46,559 bases of DNA, from contig JAAPAO010000193.1 of the NCBI GenBank assembly GCA_013115145.1, positions 6,443 to 53,001 on the forward strand, given 5' to 3'. The stretch is from Perkinsus chesapeaki (taxonomy: Eukaryota > Perkinsozoa > Perkinsida > Perkinsidae). The position numbers were made by a program, and so were the translations under genes. Shown one piece after another: positions 7,149 through 26,331 of this stretch (its first letter is position 1; each line of letters begins with the position of its first letter). The notes under the pieces are model-generated. The model made no database searches, had not been told where the DNA came from, and saw only the letters and a list, made by a program, of their open reading frames with translations.

Positions 7149-8190
7149 TGGCGTGATGAGATACAACAGCTTGCAAAAACAGATGCCAAGTTCAAGGTGA
7201 TGGTGGGGCGCGGCTCGCCGTGCACCCGTGTACGCATCGCATACTATGCGGAGCTAACCTCTCAATCCTTCCACTAACCTCAAATTTCGTGCTGCATTGG
7301 GGACACCTGACTGTGTCCTTGACTTGTCCCGGGTGAAGTGCACTCAAATGTGACCAAAGATATTGTGGTTCTACCCGACAACTTTTGTTTATGAACTCAT
7401 AGCAACAATGATGTGCTAGTGGATAATTGGGGACATTACATGTGTGCTGTCGCGCGGAAAGGCCTTATCCGAAAAGGTGAGTGCTACTCAGTGGGTAGGG
7501 AGGAAAGAGTGTACAAAACACCAGTGCATGCTGGTGCAGTATTATAAACACCGCAAGGATGAGGCATGCCCGAAGGGATATAGATAATCGTTACAGTCTA
7601 CTGTAAGTACAGTTAGCTTCGCTTACAGGGACATGAAAAAGGGGACAGAATGTATTATTTCTGTGAATCATCATTACATAGGAATTCCGGAGATCGAGGT
7701 TGAGAAAACCTTGTTTGCAAGTGCAAATGACGGTACAGTTTTAGGTACCAGCGGGGTGGAAAAAGAATGGTGAGAGTAACTCTTAGCGAGATAGAACTGT
7801 ACAACTCGACTCGCACATATTCTGTGCCACAGAACCATGCTTTGTGACCGTGAACCGTCACGACAGGGGAAAGATACGGCGACGTACCAATCGTACGGTC
7901 AATGAGGCCCATCAGTTGCTACGTAAGTTATGCGGTACCTGCGTTATCACCGAAGTTTAGAAGCACGATGCCGTTTTTCTTCTGTTAGAGGAGCAGATTG
8001 TAGCGCAACTACTCCATGAACTGTTGCGACACTCTTCGTGTTTGGCACAATAATTGCGCCACAATGCGCTCCACGTGTCTCCTTGTCTCTTAACAGCTCC
8101 TGGCTCTCCTGGGGGAGCGAATCCTGAAACAGTGCGTCCACCCGCAGGCCTGCAATGACCCACCAACAGTAGGAAATGAGAGACTTCTAG
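7149..8190. other. Intergenic, no gene seen
   Basis: Spacer between the first permease gene and the palindrome-rich stretch. Several open frames of 60-85 codons occur, but none has recognisable composition, splice pattern or motif. A short GC-rich patch at 7200-7240 contains small self-complementary words. Confidence 0.6.
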
Positions 8191-14543: not shown

Positions 14544-17500
14544 ATGTTATTATTACATTACACAAAGTGCGTGTCTCCACTTTGTTCCATATACCGTACC
14601 GCTCCTGCCATCATCTCGTCAAGATTACTAGCTACCTCAGCAGCCAAGTATAATGGCGTATTGCAAGCCTATCAGCATTTAGTGAAGAAAGGTAATAGGG
14701 GATGCACATTATATCTTAACAGTTCCGGACCTCAATTTCATCGGCGTAAAGCGCAAGCTGGATGAAGTGTGTATTAAGAGTGGTGATAAGTTTCAACATG
14801 TCACGCCAAGCTGCCTGGCCCAGACAGGCCAATATTCGTTAAATGCATTAGACGCTGCCCTCGGCCGGGGTCGACTAGCTTGTTTTTATCAGGTGACTTG
14901 AGTCCCGATGAGAAGCAAGAATCAGTTGTACGTAAACTGGATGGACTATCTGATAGGCTGTCAAGATATACACCAACATTTAACCAGCTCACTGACCAGG
15001 AGATGGCAGCGACTGCCTCAGGAACAGGTTATATAGTGGGGTGGTTAGTCTGGTGGTTTCTCTTGGCGTAGGACTCAAGTTCGATCCCATGTAAACTGAA
15101 GTTGAATATCCTTTTTCTCCACTATTCCAAGCCAAACATTTCATGCACGGTGTGATGCTAGATGCCATCCATCTTGGACCATTTTTCATCATTTCCGAAT
15201 TCAGTCCTGGCTTTTCCTCGCGGAATTGCCGCGTGCTTTGAGCAACTTCTTAGCGTCTGCCTTCCCTCGTCAAATTTATCATGTACTAGTTGGCAGGTCA
15301 ATCGACAGTAGAGCGGAATGGCGACCATAAGGCGACATCAAACGGGGGCTTATTCAGTCGACTTTTTGGCGGGCCGTCACAGTCTGTCTCCTCTCACCAA
15401 GTTCCGCCGCATGTAGCCTGCCGAGGGTGAGAGTATATAATTTCCGATGCCACTGATCCGGTGATAGGTTGTATCTGTGGGGAGGTTGCGGTAGCGGCAA
15501 GTCCATGCTCATGGACTTGTTCTACCATAATGTTGGTGTAAAGGAGAAAAAGAGAGTTCATTTCCATGAGTGGATGATGCAGGTACGAGGGCAGGAATTT
15601 ATCGCGTTTCTGAATGGCTCGATTTTCCGTGTCAAGTTGATGGTATTAATTGCCGCTCTTTTCGACACATGGCAAATGCGGGCTATTTGGACGGCTGTAC
15701 ATTACTTAACCTATTTTGAATCTTTTAACGTCATTATGTCCCTATTAGGTCCATTCAAAACTCCACGAGTTCCAGCTTAAAAGCGCAAGTAGAATGGCGA
15801 AGTGTGATACAGCGTGGACTGCAGCCAGCGCAGAGGTGATATCGGCCCGGTCATTAAAGATAAATGATAACCTGATTAGCTCGGTATTCAAAGCCTCACT
15901 GCGGCGTTGATCTGTTCTGGGGATAATACAGTGATGTGTTGGAAAATATATTTCAATACTTTTGAAATTGATAGAGAATTCGTTTTTTGGTGCTGGTCTA
16001 CGAGGAGCAGGCCTCCGCGCACGTAACCTAGACATCGTGAGGCATTTCGGTTAGACTTTGTTATTGTTTATGAACTTCTCAGGCTCAACGGATGAGCCTT
16101 CAAGGAACTAATGGAGATAAACAGAATGATTTAATTGATCAAGTAGCTGATGAAATGATGGCTGAGGCTTGGCTATTATGCTTCGATGAATTCCAAGTAA
16201 GTTGGGAAAGTTGCAACGAGCAATATGCCAGGACTGTCCTTTACATTATAAAGTAGTATTACTCAATAATGGTGTATTAGGTGTAAATATTAATTATTAT
16301 TGTAAGTAACTGCTTTCACAGACTATGTTAAATATGTTATCGAGATATTACACATACATAGTTTTGTCGATAACAGTTATATTCTTTGGTGTTTTTCCCT
16401 ATCCATTTCCCATTAACTACCCTCTACATCTCTATCTCTATAGTCTATACTTATCACGGATGCCTCGAAGTGAACTATGAAAGGGTATCTTGAGCCCAGT
16501 CGAACTGCCGAACTGAACCTCTAGCGCAGTTTAAATGCGGCATTTGGACGGCTTATGGAGATGCTGTTCTGATCAGGTCACATTTATATCGGATGCGGTC
16601 ATCATGCGTCGATTGTTCAGCAAGCTGTTCCAGCGCGGCTGTGTGGTGATAGCGACATCCAACCGACCTCCAGAGGATCTTTATAAGAACGGCCTCAATA
16701 GGGGCTTATTTTTACCGTTTATTCCGATGATTAATAGATTCACTGAAGTGAGTTGGCATGATAAAGTGAAATTCATTGCCTGTTTGATAGGTTGTCAATT
16801 TGGATTCGGATGTTGATTATCGTTACATTATGGCACAGGCAGCGAACGCTGGCGATGACAGGAGCGTCTATTTGGCTCCTTTGAGTGATTATAACAAACG
16901 TCTTTTGGAAGCGAAGTTCTATCGAATGGCTAAAAACGAAGTTATTACTCATCAAAAGTGAGCACGCCGTCACTCGTTATCCTTCCGTTCCTCCCACACA
17001 CTGAATAGGGTTCGGTGTCAGTCAGAAAAAAACTAAGTCCTGATAGCTTTTGTTGCTCCTCGATGCTCTGGCTTGCAGAACTATAGCGATTATTCCCACA
17101 ACGCTGCCGCCTATTTGGAGTCCTTTTCAGATTGGAAATCCAAGGCCGTCATTTGGATGTTCGCCGAGCAGCAAAGCATACAGCGCTGGCCTGGTTTACG
17201 TTCAAAGAGCTTTGTGATCGACCACTGGGAGCGGCAGACTATTTGGCCATCGGTGAGATGGGGAATGTTTGGGTGATTTGAGGGTTTTATAGGTAAGCAT
17301 TATCATACCATATTTTTGGAGGAAGTTCCAGTCCTTACGATCAATGAGAGAGATCAAGTAAAAGTAGCCCCTTTCATCTGATTCTTATTCAATTTTTTAA
17401 GGTGCGACGGTTCATCACTTTGATAGACGGTCTCTATGAAGCGGGGACAAAACTTGTGTGCTCGGCTGCTGCTGAACCTGGTAAGATGCTCCTTGATCGC

Positions 17501-18478
17501 TGTAGGACTTCCGCAGTTCAATCACGAAAATCGTCGACCGTATCGAGTAGCGTCTTCAAATCTCAGTGGTGTGGAAATCTTGCACAGTTTTGTGGGATCC
17601 CCTTTTTCGGCATTTCTCGGCAACTGCATTCACATTCGGTTGCGCATCACCCAAGTACACAAAGAGGCTTTGAATGTGTTACTTCGGCCACTGCCAGTGG
17701 CCGAAGTAACACTTTCAACCAGTGGCCCACTGGTGGATGATTACTGGAATAACCTGTCATTTTAGACCGAACTGTTGAGGTATCGAGGGATTCGTCGTAG
17801 AGGAACGCTACATTTTGCTGGAAATAGTGCATTGTCGCTCGGAGATGTGTTTCCAAGTGGACTGTCTGTCATGGTGCTGTATCCGTAACGCATTTCCCGG
17901 AGGCTAGAACAGTCCTTGGGCCGATCCTGCTATTTGCACATCTCCCTCAGGTGCATTGTTTTCCATCACTGATGAGGACAGGGCGAACTCGGCATTTGAT
18001 GAGGTCTTTGCATGGGACAGAACTGTGTCGAGGCTGATGGAAGTAAGTGGCCGATTTACCGGGCTCGCTTCATCTGTGTCGATGTCAGATGCAATCTGGC
18101 GAGTATCTTTCAGAGCATGCTCGGAAGCTAAGCGCTGATGAGATGCTTGGTCAATATGAGCTCAGCAACCTCTCGAAAGAGGATATGGACGACCTGTGGT
18201 TCAGGTAGCCCTCTGCATTCATAAGCTTTCACAGCCTCTTGGTCAGATATGATCGGGATGACAGCGGATCAATTGATGCTAGCGAGCTCGCACTCCTTCT
18301 TGAAGATCTCACCGAGCACGTCGAGGGTCATCGTCACGTGCCTGCAGAAGTTGTTGTTGCATCGATGGATTTTCTCGACCTCGACAAGAATGGTGTTATT
18401 GATAGATCTGAGTTTGACCACTACTGTGAGAAGTATGGTTTAGCAATTACTGGTCCTATCAAGTTAGGCGGATCTTAA
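14544..18478 (+). CDS. AFG1-type mitochondrial ATPase fused to a C-terminal EF-hand pair (565 aa)
   Basis: AFG1/LACE1 proteins are mitochondrial P-loop (AAA+-like) ATPases involved in inner-membrane protein quality control. Thirteen exons in phase: 14544-14691, 14893-15027, 15297-15426, 15468-15582, 16083-16196, 16577-16747, 16791-16957, 17131-17252, 17293-17357, 17402-17480, 17951-18042, 18089-18204, 18235-18478. The first ~35 residues look like a mitochondrial presequence. Walker A is GGCGSGKS (143-150), Walker B LLCFDE (207-212), and ATSNRPP, FKELCDRPLGAADYLAI, RRFITLIDGLYE and SRLMEMQSGEYL follow in family order. AFG1 normally ends about there. This protein continues with a helical linker and two canonical EF-hand loops, DRDDSGSIDASE (491-502) and DLDKNGVIDRSE (533-544). 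The box usually reading VTDIADA is VTFISDA here. The last intron is only 30 nt; without it the frame stops, so the fusion depends on that splice. Confidence 0.9.
17676..17734. repeat. 37-bp and 17-bp perfect palindromes inside an AFG1 intron
   Basis: 17676-17712 has 18-base arms (GTGTTACTTCGGCCACTG and its complement) around a single C. It is followed at 17718-17734 by ACCAGTGG-C-CCACTGGT. Both lie in the 470-nt intron 17481-17950, one of the longest in this gene. Confidence 0.97.
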
Positions 18479-18848
18479 GTTAGTATTATGTTGTTTGATT
18501 TTGTACACTGTGACGTCCAGTCAAGTTTGTTCTACATTTCCTTGCGTCATTTTTATTGAGACACATGTTTGTATGATTCCTTTTATATAGCCTCAAGCTG
18601 CTTTGTGTTATATCAACATTCAATCTGGCTTCACATGCTGATGAAGCGTCTCCTAGAATCCTATTAATCAACCCTAGATAGCGGGACCTGACCCGCTTCC
18701 CTTTATCCGATCCCTCGGTGCCGGTTTGACAATACCATCGTTGTCCGGATTTATATTGAGTCGCTGATGTGGATAATCTGGGAATTGAACTCGGATCATT
18801 GGCTAAGTGGGCTGAGCTCCTAACCATTTCACCATTACCGAAGTTTGT

Positions 18849-21012
18849 ATGTTGCTTGCGTCATCCCTTTCCATTGGTCTACTCTACCGTAGAACGTCGA
18901 CAACATCGGTTTGTCGTCGGTTCAGAGGACTTGCTTGCCAAAGACGCCTTTTCGGCAGCTCGCTCGACTACTCGCCCATCGTCATTGCAAAGGTCTCGGA
19001 ATCTCATGCAGCCCGCCAAAAGGAACTGTACCTCGAGGTGAGCAGCAGAGCTTCACCGAATACCCGACTATGGAGGGTTCAGGTGTCCCCCTCGCAAGCT
19101 TCTGACGACATCCGGTCACTTGTCGTGCCCATTCATCCTCAAGACGATGTTCGCTCACTTTGTCAGGTAAACGTTCGGTTAGTTTGGGCATCGTCACACA
19201 GGGCGATGACTCGTTCTTGAAGGCTGGGGTGTTGTTGGTCTTACCTGTCATGTGGAATGTGTTGCAGGGCACTCATTCGATTGTCCATAAATACATCGAA
19301 CCGTTTAAGAAGCTTCTGTCTTAAGTTTAGACTCTCTAAAGCGGCTAAATCAGGCTAAGACCTTCAACACTATTTCGTCCGAGTCTCCTTCAACAATCAT
19401 TTTTAAGCTTCCTGCTAGCATGCCTGCGGTTCCAACACGGGGGTATCGGTGTTAGTTGTGGAGTAAAATTCAGTTCGCCCACAACTTGAGGGTGTGTATT
19501 AGTACCCTTCCTACGAGGGGTTCAGAATCCCAGGGGATCTGCCACGGATCTGTGCTGGCATGCCGATTTGAGTGCCAGGAAGAACTTTCAACCCAAGGCT
19601 GATTAGGAGCACAGAAAACCTCAATGCGTGCGTGCAACTGTGTAGATCCCTAATAGCAAACTGCGCAACTATAAAGGACGGTGCAAAGATAACAAACATT
19701 CTTGCCTACCTAAGCTGACTAAGTCTACTGATATCCTAGCACAGCTAATCTCACACTAGTGCACACAGAGTGACATAGCCTATGCTAGTGGATAGACATT
19801 GACTACACATCTTCTACCCGTTTTTCTGTTAAACGTTCGTGTTGATAAATGTTGGTATCTCAGAAAGTCGGAGCCTCTATCGGTTCCCCACAAGTTGACA
19901 TACTTACCAGTCGACCAGCAAGCATCGTTGTTTCACCTGAAGAATCGGTATGGAAGCTCACGGATGTCGATGAAGGCTTCCAAGTATCTACGTCACGTCA
20001 CACGCACTCGGACTCGCCACTTCTCAGCTACGTGTGACGCCGCCTTCTGGTGCCCAAAGCCAACCACAATCGATTGAAGTCCACTCGGGAAGGAGCGCCA
20101 CTTGCGCTCCGCCGGGGAACGCCGCAAGGCTTGCAGAATTGAAGGAACAACGTCGACGGTTACAAGCCTTAGAAGGAGATATAAGAGAGCTTGCAATGAA
20201 GAAAACTAAGTGATTGAAATGATTGCCTATTTTATTTCTAAGCTGTTCGTAGTAAGTATGCTGCTGGTGGTGTAGCGCTATTTTCCTTTGAATGGGCGTT
20301 GGTGTATTATGGCACATATTTCCTATATGGATGGGATGTTATGGAACCAATTACGGTACCAATGCATCCACTTATTTACTGATTCATATCTTTAGTATTT
20401 GCTTGGCTTATTTGACGTTATCGTAACATACGGATTCTATATGTTTTGGAGGGAGGACTATTCCCCGAAGACCTTTCATCAAGTGAGCCTCAATTACTAA
20501 CAGGAATATGTACATTCGCTCGCCTACCCAATACGTGTCGAATTCTTTGGCGCTGAGGTCACTTGCTTGAGCTTTATTAGTAATAAAGCTTAAGTAATGA
20601 ATTATTACGCCACCAACTTCGCAGAATTAATCACTCATACAGCCCGACGCGATTGAGTAAAGTATTCCGCATCCTTTTGGTTTTTTTATCGTGTGAAAAA
20701 ACTAGTAAATGGGGATTATTCTATTGAATTGCATTGGGCAGTACTGTACTGCCAGTACATAAAGGATATGTTAGATATCCTCATATAGGGAAAGGGAAAT
20801 TTGGAGGGAGTTCTGTCCATTTTCTTGCAGCGATTTCGTGCCCAATTGGGGTAGGCGGATAGATATTTGAACGCTTTATTGTCGAGTGTGGTTGGCAGGT
20901 TATATACTCTCGACAGGAACGTATACTAAGGCATCAGCGAGGCTTTGATCCGAAAGTTAAAGATGCTGTGGAACACGAGATAAAAATGCTGGAAGATGAA
21001 CTTAACGAATGA
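18849..21012 (+). CDS. MCU: Mitochondrial calcium uniporter (MCU family)
   Basis: MCU forms the Ca2+-selective pore of the inner mitochondrial membrane. Well-resolved exons, all in phase: 19864-19983, 20028-20209, 20253-20355, 20396-20482, 20917-21012. They encode a coiled coil (AELKEQRRRLQALEGDIREL), TM1 (GGVALFSFEWALVYYGTYF), the selectivity-filter motif WDVMEP (human WDIMEP), TM2 (YLLGLFDVIVTYGFYMFW) and a C-terminal coiled coil ending at TGA 21010. The likely start is the ATG at 18849: a basic, Ser/Arg-rich presequence of about 35 residues, then exons 18849-19037 and 19083-19166. I could not connect these to 19864 in frame; the exons between 19268 and 19860, which should hold the N-terminal domain, are unresolved. 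The gene starts 370 bp after the AFG1-EF-hand stop, on the same strand. Confidence 0.88.
20566..20594. repeat. 29-bp palindrome in the last MCU intron
   Basis: Arms AGCTTTATTA/TAATAAAGCT surround a single G at 20580. Pairing extends to CTTG/TAAG outside them with one G-T wobble. The host intron (20483-20916, 434 nt) is by far the longest resolved in MCU and also holds GGCAGTAC-T-GTACTGCC near 20728. Confidence 0.9.
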
Positions 21013-23853: not shown

Positions 23854-26331
23854 TTATATCAACCCACCTGATGACGAGGATGAACCCATTTGATACATGT
23901 TGACGGCAGCAGCAGCAGGCATAGAATCTACTGAACGATCAGGAGAAGATTTCGGCGGCGGAAGTGACCTCGGATATCTGACCAGAGGAAGCCTTCTACA
24001 AATACACAGACTTAGCTCACGCGCCAAGGGGATTGGAGGCCGGCCTCTTTGGCTCGTTTTTATCATCATCAGAATCAATGCCACGGACTCTATCGGATCC
24101 TGAAGAACACATAGTGGTAGATTCAGCTGTAGCGCCTGTACCTTCTGATCCTTCAGGCGATGACATGAATTGATGTGGGTCCGTCTGAAGGGAACCTTTT
24201 AAGGGACTCTTATAGCCTGTCGCTACTTCATCTGGATTATATAAAATGATAATGTCATTCGGAGGTTGCCCGTCGTCTTCCTCGAATACAACGTCTTTGC
24301 GTCCGGCAGTCCTCCGATGTATTCTCGCCGGAGAGACTAGATGCTCCGATCCCGACTCACTCTGCATTTCCAAGGTCTCTGCTGGGACACCTTCAAACTA
24401 GAATGAAGCAGCAGCTCAGAAGTCCTAAGTTCACCTTCACTGTGGTGTACAATCCTGATAACGCTGCCATCCCTCGAGGATTGACGTCCGTGTTTATGAG
24501 GGTGTAAACGAGTTACTTCGGTCTCAGCGTCACTGATCTGCCGATGATGCATTCGATGAACGCTGTAAGGGCAAGGTGTTCCCTCTTCAGGAACATCTGG
24601 GAAACAGAAGAATTCCACTTCATACCACCACAAATGGTCCTGTTGTGTGGCGTAAGGTAATCACACAAGCTGGAATGGTCTAGTTGGTTATGACGATCGC
24701 CTCACACGCGATAGGTCCCGAGTTCGATTCTCGGTTCCAGTATTCGCGGTCGTCTTCCCCTTACCTTCATCGGTAGTAGCTGCCGGACTTCTTACAGGGG
24801 TCGATACTTCGCTCGAAGCATCCTGCTCCTCCTCGGCGGTGCCTTCTTCAAGACTTCCTTCTTCCTCATGTTGTCGAACGTAATCTCGGTATGCCGGATG
24901 AACTCGGAACCTAATAACACCTACGCAACGCTATTCCGCATTGGTGGTACAATCGGCGGAGGAATGACTGGACAGTTCCTGTCATGCTCATCGCCATAAG
25001 GGCACCATCGAGGACTGTGTTCACTCGGCTCAACTCTCGATCCCGATAGTCTCCGAGGAAACTGAAATGTGGGTTCAGAAGAGTCCTCAGTGTCTGGCTG
25101 ACTTTTTGATGGGGATGCCGTTATCCAAATGGAAGGCGAAACAGCATCTGAAGTGTCAAGTGAAGAATCCCTCAGGCGTCGCCGCTACAGGTTATTGTCG
25201 AGGATTATGGTACGGTCGAGATTTCTCCCGAGGCACTTCAAGTCTTTGACCAGAATAGTGGATTCTCTTTCATGATCAAAAAATTCCTGAGTTCGCATAG
25301 TTCCACAGCTGCTGCGTTGGATCTCACCGAACAGTGCTCGCGATAAAGCCTGTGCGACACTAACATGCCATGCGGGTCCAAGAAGTCCACAACTTGATCA
25401 GCTGGAAGGATATAAGTATTACCTCATCAAATCATATCTTACCGTAGCTCTTGCAACCGGCAGTGAAGATGACAATCTCAAATTTACTGGCCCAGTAGGA
25501 GAGATATACCCTCACCCACGGACGTAGAAATATGTACGCCTGATTGCAGTCGAAATCAGCAATCGCCTTCGCCGCCGATACCGACTGATTCAGAATTTTC
25601 TTTATCTGTTGGATCGGCATAAACTCGCATGAAGTGCTGACTGGTGCCCTCGGCCTCCGGATCGAGGCCTGAAAGAAGTTGCTATCATTTGCATCTTGGT
25701 GCGTAAGACGTGACGGTTCAGTGTCTCATTTTTTGTATTGCTCGAGTTTCAAGTCCATAAAAACACTTACGAAGACCTTTTGTGATTTCCTAGCGCTTCC
25801 GCACGTGCTTTGGGTCACGTCGAACAGCTGTAGAGAAACACTCTGTGTTAATGATGTGGATGAACTGCTGCCAATTATCGCAAACATGCCGGATTATTGA
25901 TGTTTATTAGTAGATAGCGCACAGTGTATAGTATCATTCAGGATATTAGTGAAGAGTAAGTAGTGAGCTCTTCTAAACCGATCTTATAGAGAGACGCCTA
26001 CTACTTAGCCAGCAAAGGGAATCGAATTGGAGCCAGACCACCGCAGTTGAGGAGCTCACCCGATTGATGGAGGAAGTCATAAGACATCAGAGTGAGGGTA
26101 TCATCAACATCCAAGCATAATGTAGGCCTGTTAGGGTATTCAGGGGGTGGTCTGATGACGAATAAACAAGAGAGCGGTATGGAATTTCCCACAGATAGGG
26201 CCAATCTTCCTCGTTGCTAACATCATGATCTTCACGTTTACATTGACGTAGCTAACATTCGATGAGGTGCTACAATCATTTGGATTTACCTGCGCGATCG
26301 ACTTGAATGCATGCAAAGACTGTTCGCAAAC
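23854..26331 (-). CDS. FCP1/NIF-domain (HAD-type) protein phosphatase with acidic disordered tail
   Basis: A CTD-phosphatase-like (FCP1, SCP, NIF) HAD enzyme. Exons: 26290-26331, 26060-26127, 25586-25668, 25443-25539, 25328-25401, 25189-25286, 25103-25147, 24921-25061, 24796-24910, 24391-24639, 24021-24361, 23854-23995, about 497 residues in phase. The motif LCLDVDDTLT supplies the catalytic DxDxT. Then come FLRPWVRVYLSYWASKFEIV with IFTAG, DQVVDFLDPHG, LVKDLKCLGRNL with TIILDN, and DNGIPIK. The C-terminal half is rich in Ser, Glu, Asp and Pro, probably disordered. Exons upstream of 26331 (open frames at 26380-26607) are likely but unresolved. The 24921-25061 and 24796-24910 exons are separated by only 10 nt (GTGTTATTAG on the coding strand). 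A tRNA gene lies antisense in intron 24640-24795. Confidence 0.87.
24670..24741 (+). tRNA. tRNA-Val (anticodon CAC)
   Basis: Acceptor stem CTGGAAT/GTTCCAG (one T-G pair), anticodon stem ATCGC/GCGAT with loop CTCACAC giving anticodon CAC, and T stem CCGAG/CTCGG around TTCGATT. The discriminator base is T. No intron. It lies wholly inside intron 24640-24795 of the minus-strand phosphatase gene, in the opposite direction. Confidence 0.93.

What the first reader, a model, noticed from the sequence alone, without database searches (positions are those of the whole stretch)
14544..18478. AFG1 ATPase fused to a canonical EF-hand pair
The AFG1 domain is complete through its usual C-terminus (SRLMEMQSGEYL), and the same in-phase transcript model continues into two EF-hand loops with all Ca2+ ligands (residues 491-502 and 533-544). 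AFG1/LACE1 proteins as I know them lack EF-hands. A built-in calcium sensor would tie this mitochondrial ATPase to matrix or intermembrane-space Ca2+. I know of no description of this fusion.
Basis: partly seen in the sequence, partly recalled or inferred. Interest (0 to 1): 0.85.

Follow-up and report, generated by a model that had tools for sequence, protein, structure and literature searches.

The report
Mitochondrial AFG1 ATPase with calcium-binding tail
A relative of dinoflagellates, most likely the clam parasite Perkinsus chesapeaki, encodes a probably mitochondrial protein-handling ATPase joined to a pair of calcium-binding EF-hands; related species share the fusion, which suggests a calcium control of this machine that nobody has yet tested.

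Summary
The window (probably Perkinsus chesapeaki, inferred from a deposited protein identical over 378 residues) carries a 14-exon gene, 14544-18478 (+), coding 590 aa: an AFG1/ZapE-type AAA+ ATPase (Pfam 316 bits) followed by two canonical EF-hands. One exon, 18089-18204, holds both the AFG1 end and the first EF helix. The last intron is 18205-18246, not 18205-18234.

The fusion is not private to this genome. Of the 120 homologues listed (best of 7,882), 119 carry the tail and 89 have two canonical Ca2+ loops; they include Perkinsus, Polarella, Prorocentrum, Amoebophrya and transcriptome-derived proteins. It already sits in databases; five full-text searches showed no paper about it. One clade kept the tail but lost the ligands. 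A second, divergent AFG1 in the genome ends without EF-hands.

Most likely function: a built-in calcium switch on a mitochondrial AFG1, the cis counterpart of the calmodulin-binding plant AFG1L1. This is inferred. The next gene downstream is the only mitochondrial calcium uniporter found in this genome; deposited models that fuse it to AFG1 look like annotation errors.

The parts
14544..18478 (+). AFG1-EF gene, 14 exons: 14544-14691, 14893-15027, 15297-15426, 15468-15582, 15749-15835, 16083-16196, 16577-16747, 16791-16957, 17131-17252, 17293-17357, 17402-17480, 17951-18042, 18089-18204, 18247-18478; 590 aa
   Evidence: GT-AG introns and one open frame; residues from exon 6 into exon 14 identical to deposited P0002 over 378 residues. 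Exons 1-5 rest on splice logic and similarity to P0001, P0004 and dinoflagellate homologues; the start codon is not proven.
14544..14691 (+). N-terminal exon, candidate mitochondrial presequence (first 40 residues: 4 K/R, 0 D/E)
   Evidence: Charge count only; no targeting predictor was run.
15410..18112 (+). AFG1_ATPase domain, residues 133-483
   Evidence: Pfam PF03969, 315.9 bits, cut-off 27
15481..15504 (+). Walker A, GGCGSGKS, residues 143-150
   Evidence: Sequence; motif name recalled
16173..16193 (+). Walker B region, LLCFDEF, residues 236-242
   Evidence: Sequence; C, F, D, E, F, Q invariant in 62 aligned homologues
18089..18204 (+). Linking exon: AFG1 end (MQSGEYL), linker (ARKLSADEMLGQYELSNL) and the first EF helix up to DLWF
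   Evidence: Sequence; S478, Y481 and R514 invariant in 120 of 120 tail-bearing rows, window included
18205..18246 (+). Last intron, 42 nt (corrected acceptor); reading on without splicing meets TAG at once (DLWFR*)
   Evidence: WFRYDRDD in P0001, P0002, P0003
18251..18286 (+). EF-hand loop 1, DRDDSGSIDASE, residues 516-527
18377..18412 (+). EF-hand loop 2, DLDKNGVIDRSE, residues 558-569
18849..21012 (+). Neighbouring gene: mitochondrial calcium uniporter (MCU), own ATG 370 nt after the AFG1-EF stop, Arg-rich start; context, not part of the fusion
   Evidence: PF04678 77.1 bits, cut-off 30.8; ATG and stop located; only PF04678 match in the genome

Best explanation
One gene makes one protein: a mitochondrial AFG1/ZapE-type AAA+ ATPase whose C-terminal helix runs on, through a short conserved linker, into a two-loop EF-hand lobe. 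Shown by sequence: the single open gene model, both domains, intact ATPase motifs, intact Ca2+ ligands, and conservation of the tail across dinoflagellates, perkinsids and parasitic dinoflagellate relatives. Inferred: Ca2+ in the mitochondrial matrix binds the EF lobe, changes how the linker and last AFG1 helix pack on the ring, and so raises or lowers ATP-driven handling of inner-membrane (Oxa1/complex IV-linked) substrates. It would do in cis what calmodulin is reported to do in trans for plant AFG1L1.
For: Gene model and domains. 97 of 120 listed homologues carry PF03969 plus an EF-hand Pfam; 119 of 120 carry the tail, 89 with both loops canonical, 9 loop 1 only, 5 loop 2 only, 16 neither. 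Eight are from transcript assemblies by source label: P0009, P0015, P0017, P0020, P0036, P0037, P0052, P0055, all with both loops canonical; P0111 (GEMP01 accession) is probably a ninth, by recall. Median identity to the window is 57% in the ATPase core, 47% in the AFG1 end plus linker and 41% in the EF pair, against 25% in the variable stretch 81-137. AlphaFold2 of the Polarella homologue P0012 gives mean pLDDT 92-97 per ten-residue block over residues 501-610. Plant AFG1L1 is described as calmodulin-binding and dual mitochondrial/chloroplast (passages in PMC4844381, PMC6471148, PMC3758327: citing Bussemer et al. 2009, itself not held). AFG1's matrix-side place and its Oxa1/complex IV link come from passages in PMC12699882, PMC7050145 and PMC7314023.
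Against: No Ca2+ binding, ATPase or localisation data. 16 of 119 tail-bearing homologues have neither canonical loop and 14 keep only part of the pair, so Ca2+ binding is dispensable in some lineages. EF-hand lobes can also be structural. The genome has another, EF-less AFG1, so the shared AFG1 function need not be under Ca2+ control. No whole-model PDB match reached E 0.001 and no contact between lobe and ring could be read from the model output.
Confidence: 0.6

Rival explanations
1. The fusion is real but the EF lobe is a structural or oligomerisation module (possibly filled by Ca2+ or Mg2+ all the time) rather than a sensor; the conserved linker and the invariant R514 serve ring assembly or membrane contact.
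For: A clade of 14 sequences keeps the whole tail, including R514, while losing the ligands of both loops; 14 further homologues have only one canonical loop. Parvalbumins, which are buffers rather than switches (recalled), are among the Foldseek matches of the tail.
Against: 89 of 119 tail-bearing homologues keep both canonical loops at 41% median identity over the EF pair, more than a purely structural role would seem to require.
Confidence: 0.3
2. Two genes: an ordinary AFG1 and a separate small EF-hand protein read together by mistake.
For: No transcript of this species was examined; the last intron is short (42 nt) and, if kept, gives a stop right before the EF loops.
Against: AFG1's end and the first EF helix share exon 18089-18204; full-length homologues from transcript assemblies contain both parts; deposited P. 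marinus, P. chesapeaki and P. olseni models run from AFG1 into the EF region (P. olseni P0003 loses loop 2 in its model; P. olseni P0004 is cut short).
Confidence: 0.03
3. A triple fusion AFG1-EF-MCU, as the deposited P. chesapeaki (P0002) and P. olseni (P0003) models have it: ATPase, Ca2+ sensor and uniporter in one chain.
For: Two deposited models carry PF03969 and PF04678 together; the genes lie head to tail 370 nt apart.
Against: In the window the EF exon ends in a stop and the MCU frame has its own ATG at 18849 with an Arg-rich start that both deposited models skip; the P0003 model destroys EF loop 2 to make the join; P. marinus P0001 ends without MCU; the other 118 of 120 listed homologues show no MCU domain.
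Confidence: 0.04

Closest known systems
[quoted passage not shown] Bussemer et al. 2009, not read, seen only through citing passages)
   Same: An AFG1 ATPase of mitochondria tied to Ca2+ signalling
   Different: There the sensor is a separate calmodulin; here two EF-hands are part of the chain
AFG1/LACE1/ZapE of yeast, mammals, trypanosomes and proteobacteria
   Same: Complete AFG1_ATPase domain with Walker motifs; matrix side of the inner membrane and Oxa1/complex IV link by the literature passages
   Different: As far as the passages and the bacterial ZapE hits show, no EF-hands; here a roughly 110-residue EF tail follows the domain end
AFG1 plus EF-hand proteins already in databases (P. marinus 'ATPase n2b', Polarella glacialis 'EF-hand domain-containing protein', Prorocentrum cordatum, Amoebophrya sp. 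A25)
   Same: Same domain order and conserved linker
   Different: Nothing essential; these are the orthologue set to which the window gene belongs
EF-hand fusions to other mitochondrial proteins, such as the ATP-Mg/Pi carriers (Harborne and Kunji 2018, seen only as a reference title)
   Same: Principle: an EF-hand regulatory domain fused in cis to a mitochondrial protein
   Different: Carrier, not an AAA+ ATPase

Membership tests
AFG1/ZapE ATPase (PF03969) | Whole-domain profile match over the curated cut-off | tested here: met
   315.9 bits against cut-off 27, profile positions 58-359 of 361; the first 57 profile positions are not in the best stretch
AFG1/ZapE ATPase (PF03969) | Walker A and Walker B with intact K and DE | tested here: met
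   GGCGSGKS 143-150 and LLCFDEF 236-242; motif names recalled
AFG1/ZapE ATPase (PF03969) | ATPase activity and ring assembly | not testable with these tools
   Needs protein
AFG1/ZapE ATPase (PF03969) | Mitochondrial (or bacterial inner membrane) location | tested here: inconclusive
   First 40 residues 4 K/R, 0 D/E; no predictor, no experiment
EF-hand Ca2+-binding protein | Two 12-residue loops with ligands at 1, 3, 5 and 12 | tested here: met
   Both loops match; EF-hand_6, _1 and _5 over cut-off, EF-hand_7 pair model 26.8 against 30, under it; P. marinus P0001 and Polarella P0012 pass EF-hand_7
EF-hand Ca2+-binding protein | Measured Ca2+ affinity | not testable with these tools
   Needs protein
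Calmodulin-regulated AFG1L1 (plant) | Calmodulin-binding segment in the ATPase | not tested
   Segment not known to me; the 2009 paper is not held
AFG1-EF-MCU triple fusion (deposited models P0002, P0003) | Open frame continuing from EF-hands into MCU | tested here: not met
   Stop TAA at 18478 and separate MCU ATG at 18849 in the window; the join needs an intron that skips both

The most novel reading that the evidence does not exclude
In perkinsids and dinoflagellates the AFG1 membrane-protein quality-control ATPase became a direct matrix Ca2+ effector, coupled in function and, in Perkinsus, in gene order to the mitochondrial calcium uniporter: Ca2+ entering through MCU would switch AFG1-driven turnover of inner-membrane or respiratory proteins (perhaps including MCU itself) without calmodulin.
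Probability: 0.15. Interest if true: 0.8.

Novelty: new variant of a known kind. Interest (0 to 1): 0.5.

Why it matters
How mitochondrial Ca2+ reaches protein quality control is poorly known in protists (general knowledge, not searched). A Ca2+ sensor built into AFG1, kept across a major marine group, gives a direct and testable link, and natural loss-of-ligand relatives supply ready-made controls. The plant case (AFG1L1 and calmodulin) suggests that Ca2+ control of AFG1 may have arisen by two routes.

Tried and rejected
Two separate genes: rejected on the shared exon and full-length homologues. Triple fusion with MCU: considered and set aside.

Distribution beyond perkinsids and dinoflagellates stays open. 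One search lists only the best 120 of 7,882 hits, from a candidate list itself cut at 7,997. A tail-only search (P0029 residues 388-502) returned just 4 proteins, all AFG1 plus EF, because of its word filter. No apicomplexan, chromerid or ciliate AFG1 was obtained, so where the fusion arose is unknown. The tree (86 rows of AAA columns, quick method) puts the 14 ligand-less rows on one branch (SH-aLRT 100) and separates 73 tail-bearing from 13 EF-less rows (97), but the EF-less rows are bacterial or the long-branched paralogue, the program warned of long branches meeting, and rows labelled 'intact' there include P0014 and P0078, which fail one loop; it does not show a single origin.

Structure: Foldseek found 0 PDB matches at E 0.001 or better; the best were DnaI/DnaA/IstB-type AAA+ and parvalbumins at about 2e-3 to 7e-3. 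VIA-align rows cover model residues 62-472 almost only, so the tail was not tested there. By sequence the tail of P0012 matches calbindin (3.2e-10) and weakly parvalbumin (8.9e-5).

Literature: AFG1 with EF-hand (7 papers), with dinoflagellate, with Toxoplasma, with alveolate, 'ATPase family gene 1' with EF-hand; by titles, abstract starts and the passages I opened, none is about such a fusion. Most listed papers were not opened. The library lacks most subscription journals. Perkinsus with mitochondrial calcium uniporter gave 0 papers. No search for a MICU homologue was made.

Full report
What is there. The region 14544-18478 (+) is a gene of 14 exons and 13 GT-AG introns (40-470 nt) with one open frame of 590 codons. 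The protein has an AFG1_ATPase domain at residues 133-483 (315.9 bits, cut-off 27), with Walker A GGCGSGKS at 143-150 and Walker B LLCFDEF at 236-242, then a linker and two EF-hands with loops at 516-527 and 558-569. Three single-EF-hand Pfam models pass their cut-offs; the pair model EF-hand_7 scores 26.8 against 30 here, while P. marinus P0001 and Polarella P0012 pass it. The PROSITE EF pattern (recalled) hits the window three times, twice here; Markov-resampled windows average 0.025 hits, so the pair is not chance.

One gene, and one correction. Exon 18089-18204 carries the AFG1 end (MQSGEYL), the linker and most of the first EF helix (DMDDLWF), so the two domains cannot be parted at an exon edge. 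No transcript of this species was examined; exons 1-5 and the start codon are less sure than the rest.

Relatives. The homologue search scored 7,997 candidates, kept 7,882 and listed the best 120. By precomputed Pfam, 97 of 120 carry AFG1 and EF-hand domains. By alignment 119 of 120 have the tail (P0004, 413 aa, is cut short); 89 have both loops canonical, 9 only loop 1, 5 only loop 2, 16 neither. Named sources are Perkinsus marinus, P. chesapeaki, P. olseni, Polarella glacialis, Prorocentrum cordatum, Effrenium voratum and Amoebophrya sp. A25 and A120. Eight are transcript assemblies by label, all with both loops canonical. The EF pair (median 41% identity to the window) and linker (47%) are kept better than the variable stretch 81-137 (25%) though less than the ATPase core (57%). 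The simplest reading is that the fusion predates the split of perkinsids and dinoflagellates; where it arose was not settled, because no other alveolate AFG1 was obtained.

Exceptions. Fourteen rows with altered loops (such as DKNNDSIIAVAG) form one branch, SH-aLRT 100, near Perkinsus; they keep the tail and R514 but not the ligands. Two more rows (P0057, P0098) lost both loops. So Ca2+ binding has been given up at least twice on this tree while the tail stayed, which argues for some structural part as well.

The second AFG1. The genome search found AFG1 exons in only two places: here and on contig C144. The C144 gene (my hand-made model, 501 aa, PF03969 168.9 bits) ends shortly after its SRLCEIT motif; no EF-hand family appears in its Pfam scan. 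Its 12 homologues are two P. olseni proteins and ten others, of which the named ones are bacterial ZapE; none carries an EF Pfam.

The neighbour. The next gene on the same strand, 18849-21012, is a mitochondrial calcium uniporter (PF04678, 77.1 bits), the only match in the genome by exon-wise search, with its own ATG 370 nt after the AFG1-EF stop and an Arg-rich start, MLLASSLSIGLLYRRTSTTSVCRRFRG. P0002 and P0003 are deposited as AFG1-EF-MCU fusions, but P0002 must skip a stop and an ATG, and P0003 breaks EF loop 2. I read them as annotation errors; they do show that the gene order is shared by P. chesapeaki and P. olseni.

Fold. AlphaFold2 on the Polarella homologue with 62 rows gives mean pLDDT 81.5, pTM 0.72, and 92-97 per ten-residue block over residues 501-610. 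Foldseek's best matches, all above E 0.001, are DnaI/DnaA/IstB-type AAA+ and parvalbumins. By sequence the tail matches calbindin, E-value 3.2e-10.

How it most likely works. From passages in papers: AFG1 sits on the matrix side of the inner membrane, interacts with Oxa1 and is tied to turnover of respiratory subunits; plant AFG1L1 binds calmodulin. I infer that the EF lobe lets matrix Ca2+ act on the ATPase directly. Shown: domains, motifs, ligands, conservation. Inferred: Ca2+ binding, mitochondrial location, effect on ATPase. The leading rival is a structural lobe.

Novelty. The fusion is present in databases under neutral names. Five full-text searches returned no paper that, by title or opened passage, describes it; the library lacks most subscription journals. 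I file it as a new variant of a known kind.

Noticed in passing
18849-21012 (+): MCU gene directly downstream of AFG1-EF; deposited P. chesapeaki (P0002) and P. olseni (P0003) models fuse the two, probably by mistake, so the adjacency holds in both species.
   Followed up: partly
G000 contig C144, 14468-15016 (-) and flanks; locus L006: A second, divergent AFG1 without EF-hands; among the 12 hits of its homologue search only two P. olseni proteins are eukaryotic by name.
   Followed up: partly
P0062, P0071, P0073, P0079, P0086, P0094, P0103, P0105, P0107, P0109, P0110, P0115, P0118, P0120: A clade of 14 homologues keeps the tail but has lost the Ca2+ ligands of both loops: a natural loss-of-function set.
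   Followed up: partly
18205-18246: If this 42-nt intron is kept, translation stops at once (DLWFR*), giving an EF-less AFG1; a possible but unsupported alternative isoform.
   Followed up: no
P0001 (P. marinus deposited model): The segment HYHTIFVEDIPVLTIHERDQ occurs twice in the deposited protein, probably a gene-model error.
   Followed up: no
24669-24742 (+): tRNA-Val (CAC) by ARAGORN, the only tRNA called in the window.
   Followed up: no
intron 15028-15296 and 18781-18838: Stretches that look tRNA-like by eye; ARAGORN calls neither, and the second (searched as 18690-18850) has no other copy found in the genome.
   Followed up: partly
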